DNA from: an archaeon
GTDB taxonomy: Archaea; Nanobdellota; Nanobdellia; SCGC-AAA011-G17; GW2011-AR17
NCBI GenBank assembly: GCA_023245975.1
Contig: JAHFJF010000003.1
Span: 1-21,344, forward strand
DNA length: 21,344 nucleotides
Direction of reading: 5' to 3'
Positions 1,931 to 19,930 of this stretch are shown here, piece after piece. Each line of letters begins with the position of its first letter. Positions within the stretch are counted from its first letter, which is position 1. The position numbers and the translations under genes were made by a program. The notes beneath the pieces are model-generated. The model searched no databases. It was not told where the DNA came from and saw only the letters and a list, made by a program, of their open reading frames with translations.

Positions 1931-3373
1931 TTATTCAGCCGCCCTTTCTGTCACTCCGGCCATTAATGCAACTGCCCCAGTAACATATTTTCTTAATATT
2001 GGCAGATTGTCTATGTTTGTTATTTTTCTAGCTATTACTTTCGGCCTGAAATAAAATGACCTTAATGCATATTTCTGCAAATTCTTTAATTCATTGGATG
2101 TCCTCCCTTGCGGAACAAATACAAGGCTGTGGTCTGAGAAGCCGCCCCAGGTCTGGTAGTTGTCCCATTCAGTGGATTTCATCTCCCCAGTTTCTATTGC
2201 CTGTCTGAACATTTCTGTTCCAGGATATGGAGTGCATATTGTGAACTGCGCCCAGTCTGGGTCAAGTGATTTCGCAAATTCTATCGTTTCCAAGCTCTCT
2301 TCCCGTGTCTCTGTTGGCAATCCAATCATCATAAAAGCCCTTGTTTCTATCCCGGCTTCCCTCGTCCATTTGAAAGCATTTCTTATCTGTTCTACTGTAA
2401 CATCTTTCTTCATCAAATCCAGCAATCTTTGGTTTCCTGATTCAACTCCGAAATGTATCCCCCAGCACCCGGCTTTCTTCATTAGCTTCAGCAGGTCCAA
2501 TGTTACTAGATTAACCCTAGTCATGCAGGACCATCTTATTTTCTCGTGCAGGCCTTCATCTATTATTTTTTTGCATACTTCTTCTGTCCAGCTTCTTTTC
2601 ATTGTGAATGTGTCATCTCTGAATACAATCTCTTTTGCGCCGAAATTTTCAACTAAGTCTTTCATTTCAGCGATTACCCTTTCCGGGGAATTATACCTGT
2701 AAGTCTTCTCGAATACCTTTGAGCAGAATGTGCAGCGATAAGGGCAGCCGCGTGATGTCAATACTATGTAAGCTGGCAGCTTTTTGTAATATGATACAGA
2801 TGGTCTGTAAAGATGCATTCTCAATAAGTTTCTGTCAGGTATTGGTATGCTGTCCAAATCTTGGATCATTTCACGTTCAGGCGTCATTACAGCTTCACCT
2901 TTTTCATTGCGGTAAGCGATTCCCTTGATGTCTGCAAAGCTTTTCTTGTCTTCAACAGCCCTTACTAAGTCCATGAAAGTGAATTCAGCCTCGCCAATGA
3001 CTGCGATGTCAATTTCTGGTACTTCTTTGATTATTTGCATTGCATTGGTAGATGGGTGGGGGCCGCCAACAACAACATTTGTGTTAGGATTAATCCTTTT
3101 CACTAATTTAGCAAGTTCTAGCGTCTGTGTGTACATAACGGTCAGCATCGCAATGCCCACCATCTCAAAATTGCCTTCCTTTAGATGCTGTTCAACATCT
3201 TGAAGAGAGAGGCCTTCGGACTCACAATCCAATATGCTGGCATTATGACCATAATGGTTTAAAGTTGAAGCTATGTATACCAAAGACATAGGTTCTGATC
3301 TTGGTCCCACCTTTTTTCCAAGTTTTTTCCAGTAGCCATTATCCATTGATGGCATTATGAATAATATTTTCAT
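1931..3373 (-). CDS. B12-binding-domain radical SAM protein, paralogue 1
   Basis: 480 residues. The N-terminal part (about 1-145) has the Rossmann-like pattern of a cobalamin-binding domain, with VVGGPHPS at 102-109 and VIGEAE at 125-130, but no DxHxxG motif, as in many class B enzymes. The radical SAM core follows, with the cluster-binding motif C210-x3-C214-x2-C217 (RGCPYRCTFC). Family members use a 4Fe-4S cluster, S-adenosylmethionine and often cobalamin for methylation or rearrangement; the substrate cannot be read here. The C-terminus carries FYFRPKVI, also found in the paralogue at 4758-6170 (FYFRPSKI), so the two share a C-terminal extension as well as the core. The start is supported by a minus-strand TATA-like box at 3399-3406. 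It ends immediately beside the aspS stop with no intervening base. Confidence 0.85.
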   Translation of the reverse strand: MKILFIMPSMDNGYWKKLGKKVGPRSEPMSLVYIASTLNHYGHNASILDCESEGLSLQDVEQHLKEGNFEMVGIAMLTVMYTQTLELAKLVKRINPNTNVVVGGPHPSTNAMQIIKEVPEIDIAVIGEAEFTFMDLVRAVEDKKSFADIKGIAYRNEKGEAVMTPEREMIQDLDSIPIPDRNLLRMHLYRPSVSYYKKLPAYIVLTSRGCPYRCTFCSKVFEKTYRYNSPERVIAEMKDLVENFGAKEIVFRDDTFTMKRSWTEEVCKKIIDEGLHEKIRWSCMTRVNLVTLDLLKLMKKAGCWGIHFGVESGNQRLLDLMKKDVTVEQIRNAFKWTREAGIETRAFMMIGLPTETREESLETIEFAKSLDPDWAQFTICTPYPGTEMFRQAIETGEMKSTEWDNYQTWGGFSDHSLVFVPQGRTSNELKNLQKYALRSFYFRPKVIARKITNIDNLPILRKYVTGAVALMAGVTERAAE

Positions 3374-4757: not shown

Positions 4758-6170
4758 ATGATTAAGAGTGCATTATTTGTAAATCCATTCCCAAGGCTGG
4801 CCAAGGTGATAATGGAGGCATCCCAGCTTCCTCCGATTGGTTTGGCATATACTGCAGCATTCTTGGAATCTAAAGGAATAAAATGCTGGATTATTGATGC
4901 AAACCTGCTCAAGCTTGATGAGGGAAAAGTATTAGATAAGATAAGGGAATACAAGCCAGATTTAGTTGGGGTCAGTTTCAATATAGCTACAGTAAAGGAA
5001 GCAATATATATCGCTTCAGAATCAAAAAAACTAGGCAAGAGAGTGATAATGGGCGGCCCTTCTTCAAAAGGAGAGCTTAAATCTATTTTAGAAAAATCAG
5101 GCTCAGACTGCATAGTCCGTGGAGAGGGTGAGATAGTAACCTGGAATTTGATAGAAAAGGACTTTGATCTGCCTAATGTAAAGGGCATAGCATATTTAGA
5201 AAATGGCAGTGTTACTTCAACTCCTGAAGAGGAAAAAATAAAGGATGTTGATGCATTGCCATTTCCAGCATACCATCTTTTGCCAGCTTTAGACAAGTAC
5301 CATAATCGATCAAGAAGGCATCCAATAGCGCCCATGGTGACAAGTCGTGGCTGCCCATATGGATGCTCATTTTGCGGCAGCGCCTACACAGGATGGCGTG
5401 CAAGGTCTCCTGAAAATGTTGTAGCAGAGATAGAATACCTGATGAAGAATTTCGGTGTCAGGCAGGTTGACATCCTTGATGATAATTTCACTTTAAAATT
5501 AGATAGGGCAGAGCAAATCTGCGATTTGATAATCGCCAAAAAACTAGATATTTTGATAACTTTTCCAAATGGATTAAGGGCAGACAGGCTGACAGAAAAT
5601 CTAGTGCAAAAGCTTGCTAAGGCAGGCGTGTACAGGACGGGCGTCGGCATAGAGTCTGGCGAGCAGAAAATAGTGGATAATATTAACAAATCATTAAAAT
5701 TAGAGCAGGTAAAATTAGCTCTCGGCTGGCTTAGGAAATACAACATTGTGGCTTTCGGCTATTTTCAGTTTGGATTGCCTGGAGAAACTAAGGAATCAAT
5801 GCAGAAGACAATTGATTTCGCTAAGGAAGCAAATCCGCATTGGGCGAACTTTGGGATAACTACGCCTTTGCCTGGAACTCCGTTGTACAAGGAGCTTCAG
5901 AAACAGGGAAAAGTTAATGTTGCAGAGGATGAAGGGATAGATTCAGGATTTTATTCTGTAAAGTCTGGACATTTCGATACTGGTGATGTCACAATGCAGG
6001 AAGTTATGAGCTTCCAGAAGATGGCATGGAGAAAATTCTATTTCAGGCCAAGCAAGATACTTGATTTGCTAGGAACAATAAAATCTTACCGTGAATTGGA
6101 ATGGACAGTTTCTTTGACATTGCCAATCCTCAAAGGCGTAATTTTTAAGAAGAGCAAAGCTGCAAGCTAA
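4758..6170 (+). CDS. B12-binding-domain radical SAM protein, paralogue 2
   Basis: 470 residues, same layout as the gene at 1931-3373. The N-terminal cobalamin-binding-like domain (about 1-145) has QLPPIGLAYTAAFLES (23-38), VGVSFN (70-75) and MGGPSSKGE (98-106) but no DxHxxG. The radical SAM motif is C199-x3-C203-x2-C206 (RGCPYGCSFC). A conserved GVGIESG segment sits in the core and FYFRPSKI near the C-terminus. The paralogue sits only 1.4 kb away in the opposite orientation, with the GDT1 gene and ribA between. The chemistry is probably SAM/cobalamin-dependent methylation or a ring or C-C rearrangement, but the substrate is unknown. The start is supported by a TATA-like box about 27 nt upstream. 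Confidence 0.85.
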   Translation: MIKSALFVNPFPRLAKVIMEASQLPPIGLAYTAAFLESKGIKCWIIDANLLKLDEGKVLDKIREYKPDLVGVSFNIATVKEAIYIASESKKLGKRVIMGGPSSKGELKSILEKSGSDCIVRGEGEIVTWNLIEKDFDLPNVKGIAYLENGSVTSTPEEEKIKDVDALPFPAYHLLPALDKYHNRSRRHPIAPMVTSRGCPYGCSFCGSAYTGWRARSPENVVAEIEYLMKNFGVRQVDILDDNFTLKLDRAEQICDLIIAKKLDILITFPNGLRADRLTENLVQKLAKAGVYRTGVGIESGEQKIVDNINKSLKLEQVKLALGWLRKYNIVAFGYFQFGLPGETKESMQKTIDFAKEANPHWANFGITTPLPGTPLYKELQKQGKVNVAEDEGIDSGFYSVKSGHFDTGDVTMQEVMSFQKMAWRKFYFRPSKILDLLGTIKSYRELEWTVSLTLPILKGVIFKKSKAAS

Positions 6171-12684: not shown

Positions 12685-13101
12685 TTAAGGTTTTTTATGC
12701 TTTAATTCGATAAATAGTATGATTAATATTCCCAATACATTGTATGCATCTGCAATGTTGAAGTTAGGCCACCAGTATATTACAATGAAATCCCTTACAT
12801 ATCCAAATATTATCCTATCAAGAAGATTCCCTATAGTACCCGAAAGCAGCAGGATTAATCCTATTCTTTCATAATTCTTTGCTTTCCTATAATAATAAAA
12901 GATGAATGCTATGGCTAAAAGTGAAACGATGGCGAGAATGATATTGCTTCCCTTTAAAATCCCAAAGGCAGCGCCGGTGTTTGTTGTGTATTCTATCCCT
13001 ATCCCATCAAGCATATATATTTTATTTTGGAATAGATACTTCGTTAATTGGTCTAATATAACCAATAATGAAACAATTGAAATTAGCTTTCCGGTTTTCA
13101 T
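12685..13101 (-). CDS. lspA: Signal peptidase II (prolipoprotein signal peptidase)
   Basis: 138 residues with four membrane segments. Cuts the signal peptide before the lipid-modified Cys of lipoproteins, on the outer face of the membrane. Signature residues: LDQLTKY with D17, NTGAAFG (41-47), GNLLDR (91-96), and the aspartic dyad D104 in YVRDFI and D118 in FNIADAYN. All match bacterial LspA. The ATG overlaps the stop of the upstream 186-residue gene (ATGA, 13098-13101), so translation is probably coupled. Lgt lies 6 kb away on the other strand, and a lipobox protein is at 15161. Bacterial LspA is unusual in archaea. Confidence 0.95.
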   Translation of the reverse strand: MKTGKLISIVSLLVILDQLTKYLFQNKIYMLDGIGIEYTTNTGAAFGILKGSNIILAIVSLLAIAFIFYYYRKAKNYERIGLILLLSGTIGNLLDRIIFGYVRDFIVIYWWPNFNIADAYNVLGILIILFIELKHKKP

Positions 13102-14237: not shown

Positions 14238-14939
14238 ATGCACGATTCGAAATTGATGGTTTTTGCGGTTGTCTTGGTAGCAGGCTTAATGGCCTTTAAC
14301 CAATTTCAGATAAATTCTATTTCAGGCCATTTTACAACTTCGACTGGCAGTTCGTCTTCAAGCCTGAATTTGTTTTCAGGCTCTTCTGATGATATTAATG
14401 ATGTAGATGTTACGAAGATAGGTTCTACTGCTAATGCAGTGCAATTATTATTCCCATTAAAGGATGCAAAATCTGCTGATGAGGTTATGCAAATAATGTT
14501 CCCTACAGGAACGCCAGAATATGGGGCAGATATGGGGGTTTCATTTGATGACCCTATTACATCATTATCATTATTGGCAGGAGCATATCCTGCATTAAAA
14601 AAAGAAGTAAAAGAGAATCATCCTGATATTTGGGCTAGATACATTAAATTGGCAGCTGCTCCAAGGGGGATTTCTTGCGAGTTCTGCTGCGGTGTAGGTG
14701 CTCAGGGCATTTCAGAGAATGGTGAATTAAGGTGCGGCTGCAGCCACAGCCCAGCAGTTCAGACAGTTACCATGTGGCTAATGCTCAACAGGCCGGAATA
14801 TTCAGATGCTGAAGTGTTGAGGGAAGTAATGAGATGGAAGACATTATTCTTCCCAAAGAACATGATTGAATTAGGGCTTCAAGTTTCAGGCAAGAGTGCA
14901 TCAGATTTGCAGTTGCCTGGAATGGTGGGCGGATGCTAA
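14238..14939 (+). CDS. Membrane-anchored Cys-cluster protein ending in Gly-Gly-Cys
   Basis: 233 residues. One N-terminal membrane anchor (about 6-23), a Ser/Thr-rich linker (31-50), then a soluble domain placed outside the cell if the anchor is N-in. A Cys cluster C147-x2-C150-C151-x14-C166-x-C168-S-H170 looks suited to metal or disulfide chemistry; a similar cluster may recur in other DPANN hypothetical proteins, but I cannot confirm that here. The C-terminus reads LQLPGMVGGC, so the very last residue is Cys. The next gene ends LQDLPKMVGGC and the third ends GNGGGC. SD GGAGG at 14226-14230. First of a run of genes with 0-2 or few-base gaps. Function unknown; a redox- or metal-active exported protein whose tail is handled by the neighbours is my inference. 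Confidence 0.8.
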   Translation: MHDSKLMVFAVVLVAGLMAFNQFQINSISGHFTTSTGSSSSSLNLFSGSSDDINDVDVTKIGSTANAVQLLFPLKDAKSADEVMQIMFPTGTPEYGADMGVSFDDPITSLSLLAGAYPALKKEVKENHPDIWARYIKLAAAPRGISCEFCCGVGAQGISENGELRCGCSHSPAVQTVTMWLMLNRPEYSDAEVLREVMRWKTLFFPKNMIELGLQVSGKSASDLQLPGMVGGC

Positions 14940-14952
14940 ACGGAGGTTAAAA

Positions 14953-15159
14953 ATGAAAAATTTATTATTGGCGCTTGTTTTGGCGGTGTTAGTTATTGTC
15001 GCAGTCGTCCAGGCTGTCCAGTTGAACAGCTTGAAAGAGAAAGTTCAGGAAGGGGTTGCATTGAAGCCATCATCATCTTCAAAGCCGTCTTCAAGCAGCA
15101 GTACTGGCAGTACGCCAAAGAGCTTGCAGGACCTTCCGAAAATGGTAGGAGGATGTTAA
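14953..15159 (+). CDS. Short membrane-anchored peptide ending in MVGGC
   Basis: 68 residues from the ATG at 14953, with SD GGAGG at 14942-14946. A longer in-frame reading from 14896 overlaps the previous gene and is rejected. A single hydrophobic helix (about 3-24) is followed by a short helix, a Ser/Lys/Pro linker (39-54) with repeated Ser runs, and a tail SLQDLPKMVGGC that closely copies the tail of the gene before it. Only one Cys, at the very end. It looks like the minimal version of the neighbour: anchor, spacer, GGC tail. No family recognised. Confidence 0.75.
   Translation: MKNLLLALVLAVLVIVAVVQAVQLNSLKEKVQEGVALKPSSSSKPSSSSSTGSTPKSLQDLPKMVGGC
15147..15152 (+). promoter_or_regulatory. 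SD site coded inside the Gly-Gly codons of the previous gene
   Basis: AGGAGG lies 8 nt before the ATG at 15161 and covers most of the GTA-GGA-GGA codons of the preceding MVGGC tail. Protein tail and ribosome site therefore share the same bases here, which must be weighed before calling this particular tail conserved. Confidence 0.75.
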
Positions 15160-15160
15160 A

Positions 15161-15352
15161 ATGAAATTTAAAGCATTGATTATAGTTTTATTGGCTATTG
15201 GATTGCTATTTGTTTCGGCATGCACTACAGGCCAGTCTTATAATGTCCCACAGCAATATGGCGGCGGTGGATGTGGTGCATCATCAAATCCAGTCAGCGT
15301 TGTTAAGAATACATTGGCAGCTGCAGTGGAAGGCAATGGTGGAGGCTGCTGA
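15161..15352 (+). CDS. Small lipoprotein with bacterial lipobox and Gly-Gly-Cys end
   Basis: 63 residues. Signal peptide: K2/K4, a hydrophobic core (about 5-17) and the lipobox V18-S-A-C21, a textbook substrate for Lgt and LspA, both present in this window. The mature form would start at C21 and be only 43 residues, with a GGGGC (34-38) and a final GNGGGC (58-63). The protein thus has three Cys: lipidated C21, C38 and terminal C63. The sequence contains no known fold. It is placed between the GGC-tailed proteins and the thioredoxin genes, and it starts 1 base after the previous stop. Confidence 0.8.
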   Translation: MKFKALIIVLLAIGLLFVSACTTGQSYNVPQQYGGGGCGASSNPVSVVKNTLAAAVEGNGGGC

Positions 15353-15381: not shown

Positions 15382-15879
15382 TTGGATTTATCAAAAAAAG
15401 AAAGGCAGCAGTTAAGGCTTGAAAAATTAAGGGAAGAAAGCCTTGAAGCCCAGAAAGAGCATGATGCAGACCAGCAGCAGCATGAAAATAGGCAGAATGA
15501 ACTGCATTCTTCAAGAACAAGAAAATTGGTTATTGCAGGAGTTGTTGGTTTAGTGCTAGTGATAGGAATCGTTTCATTTTCTTTACTTTCATCTGCTTCT
15601 GAAGGGCAGTTTGATAGTTTTGCAAAATGCTTGTCCGAAAAGGGTGCCATTGTATATGGAAATGATTTTTGCTCATACACGCAAAAGCAGTTAAGCTGGT
15701 TTGGTAAATCAAGAAAATATCTTAATTATGTAAAATGTGCAGAAAATAAGGAGCTATGCAATAGCAAAGGGGTAAAAGTGACTCCAACATGGGAGATTAA
15801 TGGTCAGACATACGGAGAAGTTCAGACATTTGAGAAGCTATCTGCTGTTAGCGGATGCTCTATATTCATTAAACAATGA
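15382..15879 (+). CDS. Membrane-anchored thioredoxin-fold protein with a single active-site Cys
   Basis: 165 residues from a TTG start. A highly charged, Gln-rich helix faces the cytoplasm (about 5-45, probably coiled coil), then one membrane segment (49-70), then an outside thioredoxin-like domain. The domain matches the VKOR C-terminal/DsbA-like type: FAKCLSEKGAIVYG, active-site region NDFCSYTQKQ, then VKCAENKELC and the cis-Pro loop VTPTWEINGQTY. The usual CxxC is C97-S-Y-T100, so the second Cys is lost; C119 and C126 may form a second pair and C159 is near the end. A monothiol enzyme could reduce or isomerise mixed disulfides, or be resolved by its neighbours. Lies between the GGC proteins and the triple thioredoxin-like gene, spaced by a few bases. 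Confidence 0.8.
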   Translation: MDLSKKERQQLRLEKLREESLEAQKEHDADQQQHENRQNELHSSRTRKLVIAGVVGLVLVIGIVSFSLLSSASEGQFDSFAKCLSEKGAIVYGNDFCSYTQKQLSWFGKSRKYLNYVKCAENKELCNSKGVKVTPTWEINGQTYGEVQTFEKLSAVSGCSIFIKQ

Positions 15880-15891
15880 GGAGATGAAGAA

Positions 15892-16992
15892 ATGGAAATG
15901 TTGAAGAAATATGCAAACAGTTTTGTCAGCATTGGATTAGTTATACTAACTGTGATAGTCTTGCTAAATAGCTATTCAATATTGAAGCTTTCAAAGGATT
16001 TAGATTCTGTATTGCAAAAGGAAAAAGAATCATTAAAGCCTGTAGCTATAAGCATTGTTTCATTGGAATGTTCTGGCAAGGATTGCGTCAGCTTGAATAA
16101 GGAATTAGCAGCATTAAAATCAGGCAATGTCAAGGTAAATGATGAATCTACTGCTTCTGGCAGAGATGCTTCCCAATTAATATCAAAATATGGAATAAAG
16201 CGCCTTCCTGCATTGGTTGTTACTGGCGAAGTTGAAAGTCTTAATCTTGCAGGATACATAGAATCAGGTGATGCATTAGTCTTAGAATCTAAATCAACTC
16301 CATACCAGGATGCAGTTACTGGAAAAGTTAATGGTTTAGTAAGGGCAACATTAATTGAGGAAAAATCTTGTACCGATTGCGCTGATTTGAATATATTGCT
16401 GCAAGGATTGGAAGAGTCCGGTGTTGTATTATCAGAAAAGAAGGAATTATCTACAAATGATGCAACAGAATTATTCTCAAAATACAACATAACAAAGCTT
16501 CCGGCATTGATCTTGTCAGAAGATTTCAGTGCTTATGAGCTTTCATCTGCATGGGACAGGCTTGGCCATGTTGCCGAAGATGGGAGTTATGTGCTGGATC
16601 TTCCTTCACCGCCATACTACGACATTAAAACAAAAACAGTTCATGGCCTTGTAAAATTCACAGGAATAACTGATTCATCATGTACAGAATGCTACAATGT
16701 AACTCAAATCCATGTAAGCATACTACAAAGGATGGGCTTGTTCCTTAAAGATAGGAAGGTTGTTGATTCCTCGAGTGCAGAAGGCAAGCAGCTTATAGAG
16801 AAGTACGGGATAAAATCCTTGCCTACAATGATACTGTCTAAGGAAGCATCAGATTACGCAGGCTTTGTAAGGGCATGGAATGATGTAGGCACAATAGAAT
16901 CTGACGGCAGCTTTGTGTTCAGGGACAACAGTGTGCTTGAGCTTACATACAAGGATTTGGTTTCTGGCAAGGTAATCAAGCCGGAACCTTAA
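15892..16992 (+). CDS. Membrane protein with three tandem thioredoxin-like domains
   Basis: 366 residues. One N-terminal membrane anchor (about 12-32), then three repeats of about 100 residues. Each has a beta strand leading to a Cys pair and later a K-Y-x-I-x-x-L-P loop, where the Pro is the cis-Pro of thioredoxins: C60-x4-C65 with LP105-106; C160-T-D-C163 with LP203-204; C264-T-E-C267 with LP310-311. The first pair has a wider CSGKDC spacing; the others are true CxxC. Each repeat ends in a similar Y-x-D-x-x-x-x-x-V-x-G-L/K segment (PYQDAVTGKVNGLV, PYYDIKTKTVHGLV, TYKDLVSGKVIKP). A three-site electron relay or a triple thiol oxidoreductase outside the cell is the natural reading. SD GAGGAG at 15878-15883 overlaps the previous stop; the ATG at 15898 is an alternative start. 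Confidence 0.8.
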   Translation: MEMLKKYANSFVSIGLVILTVIVLLNSYSILKLSKDLDSVLQKEKESLKPVAISIVSLECSGKDCVSLNKELAALKSGNVKVNDESTASGRDASQLISKYGIKRLPALVVTGEVESLNLAGYIESGDALVLESKSTPYQDAVTGKVNGLVRATLIEEKSCTDCADLNILLQGLEESGVVLSEKKELSTNDATELFSKYNITKLPALILSEDFSAYELSSAWDRLGHVAEDGSYVLDLPSPPYYDIKTKTVHGLVKFTGITDSSCTECYNVTQIHVSILQRMGLFLKDRKVVDSSSAEGKQLIEKYGIKSLPTMILSKEASDYAGFVRAWNDVGTIESDGSFVFRDNSVLELTYKDLVSGKVIKPEP

Positions 16993-17052: not shown

Positions 17053-17553
17053 ATGGACTCTAAAAAAATAGGGATAACCTTGATGGTGTTAGCGGTAATG
17101 CTTTTCGGGATGGTTTATGCATTTCTGGATAATGCATCAAAGGCAAGCACACAGAATAACTGCAACCCGACAAAGGAATGCCAGAAAGCTGCATCCTTGA
17201 TAGGCTGGTCAAATATTGCTTTTGGTATAATATTCTCTATATTGAGCCTTGGATTTTATATCTTGTTCTTTAACAATGATACTCACGTATTGGAGAGGAT
17301 AGAAAAGGAGACCAAGGAAAAGGCACTGAGTGAGAAGTTTTCAATTGCATTAAGCATGCTTGATCCAGCAGAGCAGAAGGTGATTAGCGCTATTAGGGAA
17401 CAGGAAGGAATAACACAGTCAACATTGCGTATAAGGACAGATATGTCAAAAGCTAAGTTGAGCATGGTCTTGTCTGATTTTGAGAAAAGAGACATAATCC
17501 GCCGTGTCCCCAAAGGAAAGACTCTCGCTATTTACCTCAAAGAGAAATATTAG
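17053..17553 (+). CDS. Membrane-bound winged-helix regulator with an extracytoplasmic Cys pair
   Basis: 166 residues. Two membrane segments (about 6-25 and 51-73) enclose a loop of about 25 residues with C37-x5-C43 (NCNPTKEC). After a charged helix comes a winged-helix domain (about 95-166): a first helix at FSIALSMLDPAEQKVISAI, a recognition region TQSTLRIRTDMSKAKLSMVLSD and a wing RRVPKGKTLAIYL, typical of archaeal MarR-like membrane-tethered HTH proteins. With both termini inside, the loop faces outside. It could sense disulfide state or a metal through the Cys pair and signal to DNA (inference). Placed inside the thiol operon, between the triple thioredoxin-like gene and ccdA. Confidence 0.8.
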   Translation: MDSKKIGITLMVLAVMLFGMVYAFLDNASKASTQNNCNPTKECQKAASLIGWSNIAFGIIFSILSLGFYILFFNNDTHVLERIEKETKEKALSEKFSIALSMLDPAEQKVISAIREQEGITQSTLRIRTDMSKAKLSMVLSDFEKRDIIRRVPKGKTLAIYLKEKY

Positions 17554-17562
17554 GGTGCGTAA

Positions 17563-18525
17563 ATGAAAAAATTCTTGATATTTATAATATTTGTAGTTTT
17601 AGCTGTTAACGTTTTGGCTGCCGTTGATTCCCAATTGCCAATAGGTCTGCAAAAGATTGCGGCATATAATCAGTCACAGGCTGCACTGTTTGTAGAAAAG
17701 ATAACGATTTTTGTTGCATTCTTGGCTGGTCTGCTGAGTTTTTTGGCGCCTTGCACTCTGGCGATAGTTCCGGCATATTTCGCTGCGACATTCAGGGAGA
17801 GGAAAAAGGCATTGCCCATGACTCTGGCTTTTTTCTTAGGTTTTTCTACTACTTTCATTGGTCTTGGCTTGGTTGCATCGGCTATAGGGCAGACATTCGC
17901 AACCTTGCAGCTGAAGTATAGTTACCTTGTTATAATTGCTGGCATTGCTCTTATTGTCTTAGGCTTTATGTCTATATTCAACAGAGGATTCACGTTCATT
18001 AAGCCAAGCATGAAGATCTCTAAATCATTTGCAGGCGTATTTCTTACTGGCATTTTCTTTGCATTTGGCTGGTCAGCATGTGTTGGTCCTATACTTTCAG
18101 GCGTGCTTCTAATAGCTTCTCTGGTAAGCTACAGCAAAGCAGCCCTATTGATGTTTTTCTATGCATTAGGGAATTTTGTTCCGTTTATAGTATTGTCATC
18201 TTTGATAGACAAGTACAATATTCTTGGCAGCAAATGGATATCTGGCAAGGAGTTTAAATTGAATTTATTAGGAAAGGAGCACTCGTTCCATACCACTACT
18301 TTGATTTCAGGGCTAATACTGGTTGCATTAGGGCTGCTTTTTTTAATTTTTGGGAATACTAGCATAATCAATCTTTTTGATCCATTTAATATAAAGTTTT
18401 CAGAGGAAGGCTGGCAGAGGGGGCTTCTTAGTTCGAGCCATGCATTGGCGATAGCTTTATTAGTAATAATATTAGCCTCGGTTATTGTATGGTACTCGTT
18501 AAGAGGGAAGAATGAGAAGGTTTAA
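17563..18525 (+). CDS. ccdA: CcdA/DsbD-type transmembrane thiol transporter
   Basis: 320 residues. Moves electrons across the membrane by relaying a disulfide, usually from cytoplasmic thioredoxin to extracytoplasmic thiol proteins. Seen: an N-terminal hydrophobic signal-like segment (about 3-20), then six or more spans containing the two catalytic Cys, C64 in FLAPCTLAIVPAY and C173 in FGWSACVGPILSG, the core CcdA motifs. An insertion near 212-235 (DKYNILGSKWISGKEF) lies between later spans, and the C-terminal part adds further hydrophobic segments (about 241-262 and 292-312). SD GGTG just upstream (about 17553-17558). The 3' end overlaps the next gene by 14 bp, so the two are translationally coupled. 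Confidence 0.93.
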   Translation: MKKFLIFIIFVVLAVNVLAAVDSQLPIGLQKIAAYNQSQAALFVEKITIFVAFLAGLLSFLAPCTLAIVPAYFAATFRERKKALPMTLAFFLGFSTTFIGLGLVASAIGQTFATLQLKYSYLVIIAGIALIVLGFMSIFNRGFTFIKPSMKISKSFAGVFLTGIFFAFGWSACVGPILSGVLLIASLVSYSKAALLMFFYALGNFVPFIVLSSLIDKYNILGSKWISGKEFKLNLLGKEHSFHTTTLISGLILVALGLLFLIFGNTSIINLFDPFNIKFSEEGWQRGLLSSSHALAIALLVIILASVIVWYSLRGKNEKV

Positions 18526-19165: not shown

Positions 19166-19930
19166 ATGTATGTGCATAATCTTACACCGATACTGTTAAA
19201 GCTCGGCCCTTTGGAAATAAGATATTATGGGCTGATGTATGTCCTTGGCTTTCTCTTTGTTTATTTCGTATTAAATTATTTCTCTAAGAAAAAGTTATTT
19301 CCATTGTCTAAAGAGGATATAGCAGATTTAATGTCTTATCTTATTGTTGGCATAATAGTATTTGCAAGGTTATTTTATGTTTTTGTTTACAATTTTAGTT
19401 ATTACTTTTCTGAGCCGTTAAAGATATTTGCAATTTGGGAAGGCGGATTGTCTTTCCATGGCGGATTAATAGGCGCGGTCTTGGCTGCATTATACTATTG
19501 TAAGAAGAAGAATCTTAATTTTTACGATTTAGCAGATTTTGTTGTGATACCTCTTGGTGTAGCTTTGTTTTTTGGGAGGATAGGTAATTTCATTAATGGC
19601 GAATTGTATGGAAGGATAACTAATGTTCCATGGGCAGTAAAGTTTCCAGGCGCTGAGGGCTTTAGGCACCCTTCACAGCTTTATGAGGCAGGAAAGAATT
19701 TAATTATATTTGCAGTGCAGTGGCCATTAAAGGATAAATCATTGCCTAAAGGGTTTAGGTTCTGGCTGTTTGTTTTGATGTATTCTTCAATGAGATTTGC
19801 CGTAGAATTCTTTAGAGAGCCTGATACTCAGATAGGTTTTATTTTTGGATTTACATTGGGGCAGTGGATTAATGTTGTTATGTTCGCTATTGGATTAGTG
19901 TTTTTTGTGAGGGTTAATAGAAAGAAGTAA
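19166..19930 (+). CDS. lgt: Prolipoprotein diacylglyceryl transferase-like enzyme
   Basis: 254 residues, about seven spans. Transfers a lipid group from a membrane phospholipid to the thiol of the lipobox Cys. The signature G137-R-I-G-N-F-I-N-G-E-L-Y-G149 is complete, with R138, N141 and E146; SFHGGLIG contains the conserved His (H98), and RFAVEFFREPD (210-220) is the usual C-terminal block. All key residues of E. coli Lgt seem to be present. Starts directly after the DUF1461 stop (0 bp). In an archaeon the donor would be an archaeol-type ether lipid, so the product may be an archaeol-modified Cys (inference). No lnt-like gene is seen, which fits the Lit route. Confidence 0.95.
   Translation: MYVHNLTPILLKLGPLEIRYYGLMYVLGFLFVYFVLNYFSKKKLFPLSKEDIADLMSYLIVGIIVFARLFYVFVYNFSYYFSEPLKIFAIWEGGLSFHGGLIGAVLAALYYCKKKNLNFYDLADFVVIPLGVALFFGRIGNFINGELYGRITNVPWAVKFPGAEGFRHPSQLYEAGKNLIIFAVQWPLKDKSLPKGFRFWLFVLMYSSMRFAVEFFREPDTQIGFIFGFTLGQWINVVMFAIGLVFFVRVNRKK

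What the first reader, a model, noticed from the sequence alone, without database searches (positions are those of the whole stretch)
14238..15352. Three consecutive membrane-anchored proteins share a C-terminal Gly-Gly-Cys tail
Seen directly: three adjacent genes end in MVGGC, MVGGC and GGGC as the very last residues; the first two share LPxMVGGC. Codons differ (GTG-GGC-GGA-TGC, GTA-GGA-GGA-TGT, GGA-GGC-TGC), so it is not a simple recent duplication. All three have an N-terminal hydrophobic segment, so the Cys tail would be outside the cell. The genes next door handle thiols (CcdA, thioredoxin-fold) and lipidate Cys (Lgt). Inference: the terminal Cys is a handle, either redox-active, metal-binding, lipidated or cross-linked. 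Caution: for the second gene the SD of the next gene overlaps the codons. I know of no described C-terminal sorting signal that is exactly GGC at the extreme end.
Basis: partly seen in the sequence, partly recalled or inferred. Interest (0 to 1): 0.85.

Follow-up and report, generated by a model that had tools for sequence, protein, structure and literature searches.

The report
Shared MVGGC-Cys tail in DPANN proteins
Tiny archaea of the DPANN group carry an undescribed protein that comes with a five-letter tail ending in cysteine, on itself or on a small membrane-tethered neighbour; the tail is strongly conserved and probably presents one reactive sulfur outside the cell for redox or copper chemistry.

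Summary
Genes A and B end LPxMVGGC; C, a lipoprotein-like gene, ends GNGGGC. MVGGC-stop occurs in 99 of 371 phylum genomes (reversed control 3). A profile of A finds 102 of 371: all 99, two with QVGGC, one ending IVGEC. None of the 269 genomes without A has MVGGC-stop. The tail persists behind unconserved linkers and in mixed codons. In 3 loci A and B changed M to Q together; none is mixed (95 M/M, 3 Q/Q). Of 146 closed A copies, 17 lack their own MVGGC; all 17 have a separate MVGGC gene nearby. Tailed A bodies hold five Cys, the tail adds one (105 of 105). A matched no Pfam or NCBIfam family and no PDB sequence. Neighbours are thiol-redox genes and, in a sister group, copper genes. Best reading: a C-terminal thiol arm, from A in cis or B in trans, docks on A and completes a redox or copper site. 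Selection on the tail is near certain; docking and chemistry are inferred. Shine-Dalgarno overlap is refuted as the general cause; lipidation is unsupported.

The parts
14238..14939 (+). Gene A, 233 aa: N-terminal membrane helix, helical Cys-rich body, C-terminal LPGMVGGC
   Evidence: 634 homologues, best 120 listed all end PGMVGGC; AF2 mean pLDDT 90; no PDB sequence hit (29), no good PDB fold match (42, 43)
14676..14747 (+). A residues 147-170: CxxCC ... CGCxH cluster (C147, C150, C151, C166, C168, H170)
   Evidence: invariant in the 65-sequence alignment
14922..14936 (+). MVGGC tail of A
14953..15159 (+). Gene B, 68 aa from ATG: one membrane helix, Ser-rich linker, LPKMVGGC
   Evidence: 116 B-type proteins compared (a few may be A fragments), 114 with a helix-like segment, 0 with Cys between helix and tail
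15142..15156 (+). MVGGC tail of B; its GGAGG also sits where a Shine-Dalgarno for C would lie
15161..15352 (+). Gene C, 63 aa: small lipoprotein-like protein ending GNGGGC
   Evidence: 11 homologues (self included), all with FVSAC and a GGC end
15212..15223 (+). lipobox-like VSAC of C
   Evidence: read from sequence; conserved in 11 of 11
15341..15349 (+). GGC end of C
15382..15879 (+). Gene D, hydrophobic segment near the N-terminus, weak thioredoxin-like
   Evidence: PF13462 18.8 bits, below its cut-off of 23.2; cluster in 25 of 113 loci
15892..16992 (+). Gene E, N-terminal membrane helix, three thioredoxin-like repeats, each with two near-invariant Cys and a Pro
   Evidence: PF13192 37.6 bits; conservation; cluster in 74 of 113 loci
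17053..17553 (+). membrane winged-helix regulator (DUF7343; MarR-like below cut-off)
   Evidence: cluster in 47 of 113 loci
17563..18525 (+). CcdA/DsbD-like transmembrane thiol-electron carrier
   Evidence: PF02683 37.7 bits; cluster in 58 of 113 loci

Best explanation
MVGGC is a selected C-terminal thiol arm of an undescribed DPANN membrane module. SHOWN: (1) the tail is tied to the A body genome by genome; (2) the terminal Cys is the only Cys past the helix in B, and it adds a sixth to the five Cys of the A body; (3) the tails of A and B change together at the Met/Gln position; (4) in the loci held, A copies without their own MVGGC have a separate tailed protein encoded nearby. INFERRED: the tail docks in a pocket of the A body, in cis from A or in trans from the tethered B, so that its thiol joins A's five-Cys/one-His site outside the cell. 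That thiol then passes electrons (disulfide exchange) or a soft metal such as Cu(I). Where E and CcdA are encoded, they would keep the thiols reduced; in the sister group DUF411 and other copper genes sit nearby. I take a thiol relay in copper handling as the likeliest chemistry.
For: A and tail coincide: 40 of 99 relatives have A; 37 of these have MVGGC-stop, two have QVGGC, one (G085) is cut by its contig end; 0 of 59 without A have the MVGGC pattern. In the phylum 102 of 371 have A: 99 MVGGC, 2 QVGGC, 1 IVGEC; MVGGC without A: 0 of 269. M/Q concordance: 95 M/M, 3 Q/Q, 0 mixed of 98 loci with both (one Q/Q sorted by hand, its A being cut at the contig edge); 1 in C(98,3) = 6.6e-6. The two Q sequences in the tree lie apart among M tips. 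In two of the three Q/Q genomes the A and B codons were seen and differ, against copying between the genes. 17 of 17 A copies without their own MVGGC have a tailed gene nearby. Five Cys in the A body of 105 of 105 tailed A. AF2 gives the ten residues ending in MV a mean pLDDT of 92 in A, and GQSSSGGMVG of a second subfamily 86, more than I would expect of free linkers. A is N-in/C-out by positive charges in 89 of 105 (5 opposite, 11 ties). Neighbour clusters labelled CopA 26, DUF411 25, cupredoxin 27 of 113 loci (Pfam run on single members).
Against: No coordinates could be inspected, so docking rests on pLDDT alone; the last three residues of A score 67 and the last two of the second model 65, and the alignments given to AF2 contain the tail. 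Only locus neighbours and a few families were compared, so a reader encoded elsewhere is not excluded. B's orientation is not settled by charges (41 N-in, 45 N-out, 28 ties). E is absent from 39 of 113 loci (16 of these mostly contig ends), so E is not the universal partner. CuA-type cupredoxins are not significantly enriched in genomes with A (13 of 40 against 13 of 59, p 0.26), and DsbD-type proteins only modestly (31 of 40 against 32 of 59). Copper genes are a minority near group I loci (CopA 8, DUF411 12, cupredoxin 12 of 74). One locus, L073, has a tailed A and no B in the 3.4 kb held. No residue of A or E clearly follows the M/Q switch. There is no biochemistry.
Confidence: 0.45

Rival explanations
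1. The tail is a docking peptide for a thioredoxin-fold protein (E, DUF411 or D): the terminal Cys forms a mixed disulfide in the groove, and A and B are its substrates.
For: E follows A/B in many loci and is in 74 of 113; strong E hits in 18 of 40 genomes with A and 1 of 59 without; E has three conserved Cys pairs.
Against: 39 of 113 loci lack E (16 of them mostly contig ends), and 22 of 40 genomes with A lack a strong hit, yet the tail is the same. No single E position clearly follows the M/Q switch (only three Q sequences).
Confidence: 0.2
2. The tail is chiefly a Cu(I) ligand or hand-off site like the HCH end of human CTR1, and A/B are a copper chaperone pair.
For: Copper genes near part of the loci, most in the sister group: CopA 13, DUF411 9, cupredoxin 11 of 23; some B variants carry Met/His-rich stretches such as MMARMHP.
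Against: Met is Gln in three loci, so Met is not an essential ligand; near group I loci copper genes are a minority (CopA 8 of 74); CuA proteins are not significantly linked to A genome-wide.
Confidence: 0.2
3. The tail is a covalent processing signal: the terminal Cys is lipidated or linked to the surface by an unknown enzyme.
For: Strict end position and sequence; VGGC resembles a lipobox; Lgt, LspA and a Lit-family gene lie in this window.
Against: Lgt is in 91 of 99 relatives, tailed or not, and missing from three tailed ones, perhaps through incompleteness. No hydrophobic stretch before the tail; A and B already have membrane helices; no gene cluster beyond A and B was near tails throughout both locus groups.
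Confidence: 0.12
4. The tail is a by-product of Shine-Dalgarno overlap or of translation-level regulation at the stop codon.
For: GGAGG overlaps a plausible Shine-Dalgarno for C in the window.
Against: Codons mixed; GGAGG in 95 of 222; next gene more than 20 nt away, or none seen, in 112 of 222; three stop codons used; the M-to-Q change is at protein level.
Confidence: 0.01

Closest known systems
Selenoproteins K and S
   Same: One N-terminal membrane helix, unstructured Gly-rich region, and a reactive residue near the extreme C-terminus (passages of PMC10650576).
   Different: Sec is second or third from the end and the tail is cytosolic; sequences were not compared here; no partner body with the same tail is known to me.
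PacL metallochaperones (DUF6110-like)
   Same: Small single-helix proteins encoded beside metal ATPases, with a conserved C-terminal metal motif (passages of PMC13043812).
   Different: PacL1 has an Asp/His motif, and PacL proteins have Ala/Glu repeats and face the cytoplasm; no sequence relation was tested.
Human CTR1 C-terminal HCH tail
   Same: A C-terminal Cys-containing tail that binds Cu(I) and hands it to a partner (passages of PMC12731240).
   Different: The tail is cytosolic and on a copper transporter; in the DPANN proteins the Met is replaceable by Gln.
CcdA/DsbD thiol-electron export with thioredoxin-like partners
   Same: The neighbourhood encodes a CcdA-like carrier and thioredoxin-like proteins.
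   Different: A, B and the shared tail are not part of any such system known to me; E has three thioredoxin-like repeats.
DsrC-type and thioredoxin-reductase C-terminal Cys/Sec arms (recalled, no call)
   Same: Flexible C-terminal arm with a reactive Cys or Sec.
   Different: The arm belongs to one protein; here the same pentapeptide sits on two or three different proteins.

Membership tests
Any Pfam or NCBIfam family (protein A) | profile match over the curated cut-off | tested here: not met
   Pfam: best for A SoxE_N 15.4 bits against cut-off 27; 65 members scanned, three families with one weak member each. NCBIfam: none at E 0.1 for two A proteins.
Proteins of known structure (protein A) | sequence or fold similarity to a solved structure | tested here: inconclusive
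Thioredoxin-like superfamily (protein E) | Thioredoxin_3 profile over cut-off with paired Cys | tested here: met
   PF13192 37.6 bits against 24.8; Cys pairs and Pro conserved in three repeats.
CcdA/DsbD_TM (17563-18525) | DsbD_TM profile over cut-off | tested here: met
   PF02683 37.7 bits against 27.1.
Bacterial-type lipoproteins (protein C) | hydrophobic signal followed by a lipobox Cys (recalled) | tested here: inconclusive
   FVSAC in 11 of 11 homologues; Lgt and LspA in the window; lipidation itself not testable.
Lipobox / Lgt substrate (the MVGGC tail) | hydrophobic segment directly before the lipobox (recalled) | tested here: not met
   Stretches before the tail are linkers rich in Ser, Gly, Ala and Thr in B and likewise not hydrophobic in A.
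C-terminal sorting signals (LPXTG, PGF-CTERM and kin) | motif followed by a hydrophobic helix and a basic end (recalled) | tested here: not met
   The protein ends at the Cys in the tails listed.
Cu(I) chaperones | Cu(I) binding | not testable with these tools
   Only neighbourhood evidence.
PacL / DUF6110-like | AE repeats and Asp/His metal motif | not tested
   No PacL sequence was compared directly; the window's B matched no Pfam family over its cut-off.

The most novel reading that the evidence does not exclude
A DPANN extracellular machine in which one pentapeptide, [MQ]VGGC ending in a free Cys carboxylate, is an interchangeable arm: it occupies the same pocket of the A body in cis from A or in trans from one or two membrane-tethered arm proteins, completing a six-thiol centre for electron or copper transfer. 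Arm and pocket evolve as a lock and key.
Probability: 0.35. Interest if true: 0.9.

Novelty: categorically new. Interest (0 to 1): 0.78.

Why it matters
A conserved, widespread, unnamed protein family with a strict C-terminal thiol tag gives a handle on the envelope chemistry of DPANN archaea, which are small-celled and mostly uncultured (recalled). It is a case of one short motif shared between a body and free tethered arms, with natural losses and a natural M-to-Q switch as built-in controls. If the copper reading holds, it would show how cells with small genomes handle copper or thiol stress at their surface. No Pfam or NCBIfam model matched the domain here, so it is worth naming for annotation alone.

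Tried and rejected
Rejected: Shine-Dalgarno overlap. Recent duplication or gene conversion: codons differ between A and B tails in the window and in two of the three Q/Q genomes; those of L132 were not looked at. Lgt-mediated lipidation of the tail as the default (no hydrophobic stretch). CuA-protein maturation as the specific role: CuA-motif cupredoxins are near A in 14 of 113 loci, but genome-wide 13 of 40 with A against 13 of 59 without.

Led nowhere: a residue of E or A body that follows M/Q (only three Q sequences); PDB fold searches; literature. The string MVGGC gave 6 papers, judged from the listing only, none read; searches on GGC motif, DPANN thiol/copper and DPANN sorting signals showed no description of this tail in their listings. 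That is only as wide as those searches. Of six genomes with the QVGGC-stop pattern, G005 and G076 are real; G271, G295, G362 and G381 look like chance frames. Two LVGGC hits in L158 were dropped as frames that do not look like genes.

Limits and biases: many loci behind the 147 A copies were fetched because they contain the tail pattern. The least biased counts are; even there the A1 profile includes the tail columns, and the pattern ([IMV]SCE[FY]CCG) favours typical A. Match lists were capped; per-genome counts were not. One search uses genome lists copied by hand. Gene calls are longest-ORF calls, and cluster names (CopA, YHS and others) were given from representative sequences, Pfam being run on single members only. 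In one search, 2 of 7 'no tail' rows are artefacts (L101 cut by the contig end, L201 a broken frame), and its table of label changes is uninformative because unlabelled rows are not counted. One search counts Cys from 60 residues before the CxxCC motif; over whole A proteins 84 of 112 have six Cys, the rest 5 or 7-11. C-tail conservation rests on 11 proteins including the query. G162's A ends IVGEC and L111's A ends MVGAC: terminal Cys kept, motif drifted. Fisher values treat related genomes as independent.

Full report
What is in the window. Genes A (14238-14939), B (14953-15159) and C (15161-15352) end in LPGMVGGC, LPKMVGGC and GNGGGC. They are followed by D (weak thioredoxin-like), E (three thioredoxin-like repeats), a membrane winged-helix regulator, a CcdA/DsbD-like carrier, a Lit-family gene, Lgt and glutaredoxin. 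A and B start with a membrane helix; C has a lipobox-like VSAC and is probably a lipoprotein.

The tail is real and selected. Of 634 homologues of A the best 120 were listed (query included), and all 120 end in PGMVGGC. MVGGC-stop is found in 37 of 99 relatives with 0 hits for the reversed pattern, and in 99 of 371 phylum genomes, with reversed-pattern hits in 3. In 113 non-redundant loci there are 222 [MQ]VGGC tails, two per locus in 89 of 113; what precedes them is mostly unconserved, Ser/Gly-rich linker, while the pentapeptide is constant. Codons are mixed (Val GTT 79, GTA 75, GTC 36, GTG 32; both Gly codons all four; TGT 145, TGC 77), GGAGG occurs in 95 of 222, and the next called gene is more than 20 nt away, or none is seen, in 112 of 222. 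Among 1911 other ORFs in the same loci only one ends in GGC, the window's own C. C's 11 homologues, itself included, all keep FVSAC and a GGC end.

The tail goes with the A body. In 99 relatives A is found in 40. The MVGGC pattern is in 37 of these, QVGGC in two (G005, G076), and G085 is cut by its contig end; 0 of 59 genomes without A have the MVGGC pattern. In 371 phylum genomes A is found in 102: 99 with MVGGC, two with QVGGC, and G162, whose A ends IVGEC. Of 269 genomes without A none has the MVGGC pattern. Two of those 269 (G295, G381) have a single QVGGC-stop hit, as do two genomes that have A (G271, G362); all four look like chance frames. Relatives reach records labelled Woesearchaeota, Aenigmatarchaeota, Diapherotrites, Micrarchaeota, Pacearchaeota, Altiarchaeota and Nanoanaerosalina (217 encode a relative, 80 kept); three of the 80 carry bacterial labels and may be binning errors.

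Tails of different genes change together. Of 98 loci with tails on both A and B, 95 are M/M, 3 are Q/Q (G005, G076 and Candidatus Micrarchaeum DR5_63_9) and 0 are mixed (with G076's contig-cut A assigned by hand; chance 6.6e-6 if loci are independent). A further 14 loci show only one of the two. The two Q sequences long enough for the tree lie apart among M tips; G055 and G095, of the same genus as the third, have M. The A and B codons of G005 and G076 differ, so gene conversion is unlikely. Something reads the tail, and reads both.

Natural losses. Of 147 distinct A copies, 146 are closed: 121 have their own tail and a separate tailed gene near; 17 have no own MVGGC and a separate tailed gene near; 7 have their own tail with the held sequence ending too soon; 1 (L073) has its own tail and no other in 3.4 kb. 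In one of the 17 (L111) the A tail reads MVGAC, so the terminal Cys is kept. Many of these loci were fetched by the tail pattern, so the 17 of 17 is not a random sample. Among the A-driven loci the real cases are five: L089, L090, L096, L098 and the second A of L190. A can thus lack its arm where B has one. The one A seen without any MVGGC or QVGGC tail around it is that of G162, which ends IVGEC; no second tail was seen in the 6 kb fetched, of which only the + strand was printed.

Anatomy. In 105 of 105 tailed A the body, counted from 60 residues before the CxxCC motif, holds exactly five Cys (C147, C150, C151, C166, C168 in the window), so the tail adds a sixth. Over whole proteins 84 of 112 A have six Cys; others have more or fewer. 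The five Cys, H170, R134, G91, P93, G167 and P206 are invariant in 65 sequences. In 116 B-type proteins (a few may be A fragments) none has a Cys between helix and tail. Positive charges put the body of A outside in 89 of 105 (5 opposite, 11 ties); B is undecided, 41 against 45 with 28 ties. AlphaFold2 gives A mean pLDDT 90; the block ASDLQLPGMV has 92 and the last three residues 67. In a second subfamily (L095) the block GQSSSGGMVG has 86 and the last two residues 65. That fits a docked tail, but no coordinates could be inspected. No solved structure resembles A by sequence or clearly by fold search (a missing match is not proof of a new fold), and no Pfam or NCBIfam family matched it over its cut-off.

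Neighbourhoods. Of 113 loci, 74 have E near A. Of the others, 23 have the subfamily with an end like NYxNLxSNxYRGIE, where copper genes are common (CopA 13 of 23, DUF411 9, cupredoxin 11, YHS 8; in the 74: 8, 12, 12 and 2), and 16 are mostly contig ends. Pfam on single members supports HMA, an E1-E2 ATPase with HMA, DUF411, cupredoxin and a PadR protein with a sub-threshold TRASH match; YHS is a label by eye. CcdA-like genes are in 58 of 113 loci. Strong E hits follow A (18 of 40 against 1 of 59). Lgt does not discriminate (91 of 99); DsbD_TM is in 31 of 40 against 32 of 59. CuA-motif cupredoxins occur near A in 14 of 113 loci but are not significantly enriched genome-wide (13 of 40 against 13 of 59). 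Such CuA proteins have been reported in DPANN from oxygen-deficient waters as nosZ-like genes (passages of PMC10936187).

Interpretation. Of the families compared, the A body itself is the only one present wherever the tail is; the arm can come from A or from B, and arms co-vary. The simplest reader is therefore A, though whole gene contents were not compared and a reader encoded elsewhere is possible. I infer that the arm's thiol completes A's Cys/His site and takes part in disulfide or Cu(I) transfer, with E/CcdA or the copper genes as partners. E as reader, a pure Cu(I) hand-off tail, and covalent modification remain possible. What it works like: C-terminal reactive arms (selenoproteins K/S, passages), tethered metal-binding tails (PacL), the CTR1 HCH tail. 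It was not shown to belong to any of these families.

Verdict. I rate the module categorically new because its body, its arm protein and the shared arm matched no named family or described signal in the searches made here.

Noticed in passing
window 19166-19930 and relatives: Bacterial-type Lgt is nearly universal in these archaea: 91 of 99 relatives; LspA is on the minus strand at 12685-13101.
   Followed up: partly
   Followed up: partly
L090 9492-10811, L096 2191-3456: A bodies fused behind a multi-helix membrane domain with a CPxCQ motif; these A lack their own tail and are followed by a tailed B.
   Followed up: partly
L240, L243, L244 (and L241): B variants with a Cys-containing N-terminal end, one helix, an ETYxxMMxRMHPxQ stretch and MVGGC, next to A bodies without a tail (L241 seen in 65 and 67 only).
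   Followed up: partly
16 of 113 loci, clusters 15 and 16: A BlaI-like regulator and a membrane protein that looks like the M56/BlaR1 type (both by eye) lie on the strand opposite to A, suggesting a sensed stress.
   Followed up: no
L255 (G162) 2296 onward; L111: Drifted A tails IVGEC and MVGAC keep the terminal Cys and part of the motif.
   Followed up: partly
14 of 113 loci, e.g. L190 13058-13477: Stand-alone CuA-motif cupredoxins (C-x3-C-x3-H-x2-M; COX2 profile 31.7 bits in L190) in DPANN, near A in some loci but not significantly enriched with A across genomes.
   Followed up: yes
window 1931-3373 (-) and 4758-6170 (+): Two B12-binding radical SAM proteins flank a GTP cyclohydrolase II and a GDT1-type cation antiporter gene; no link to the tails was seen.
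   Followed up: no
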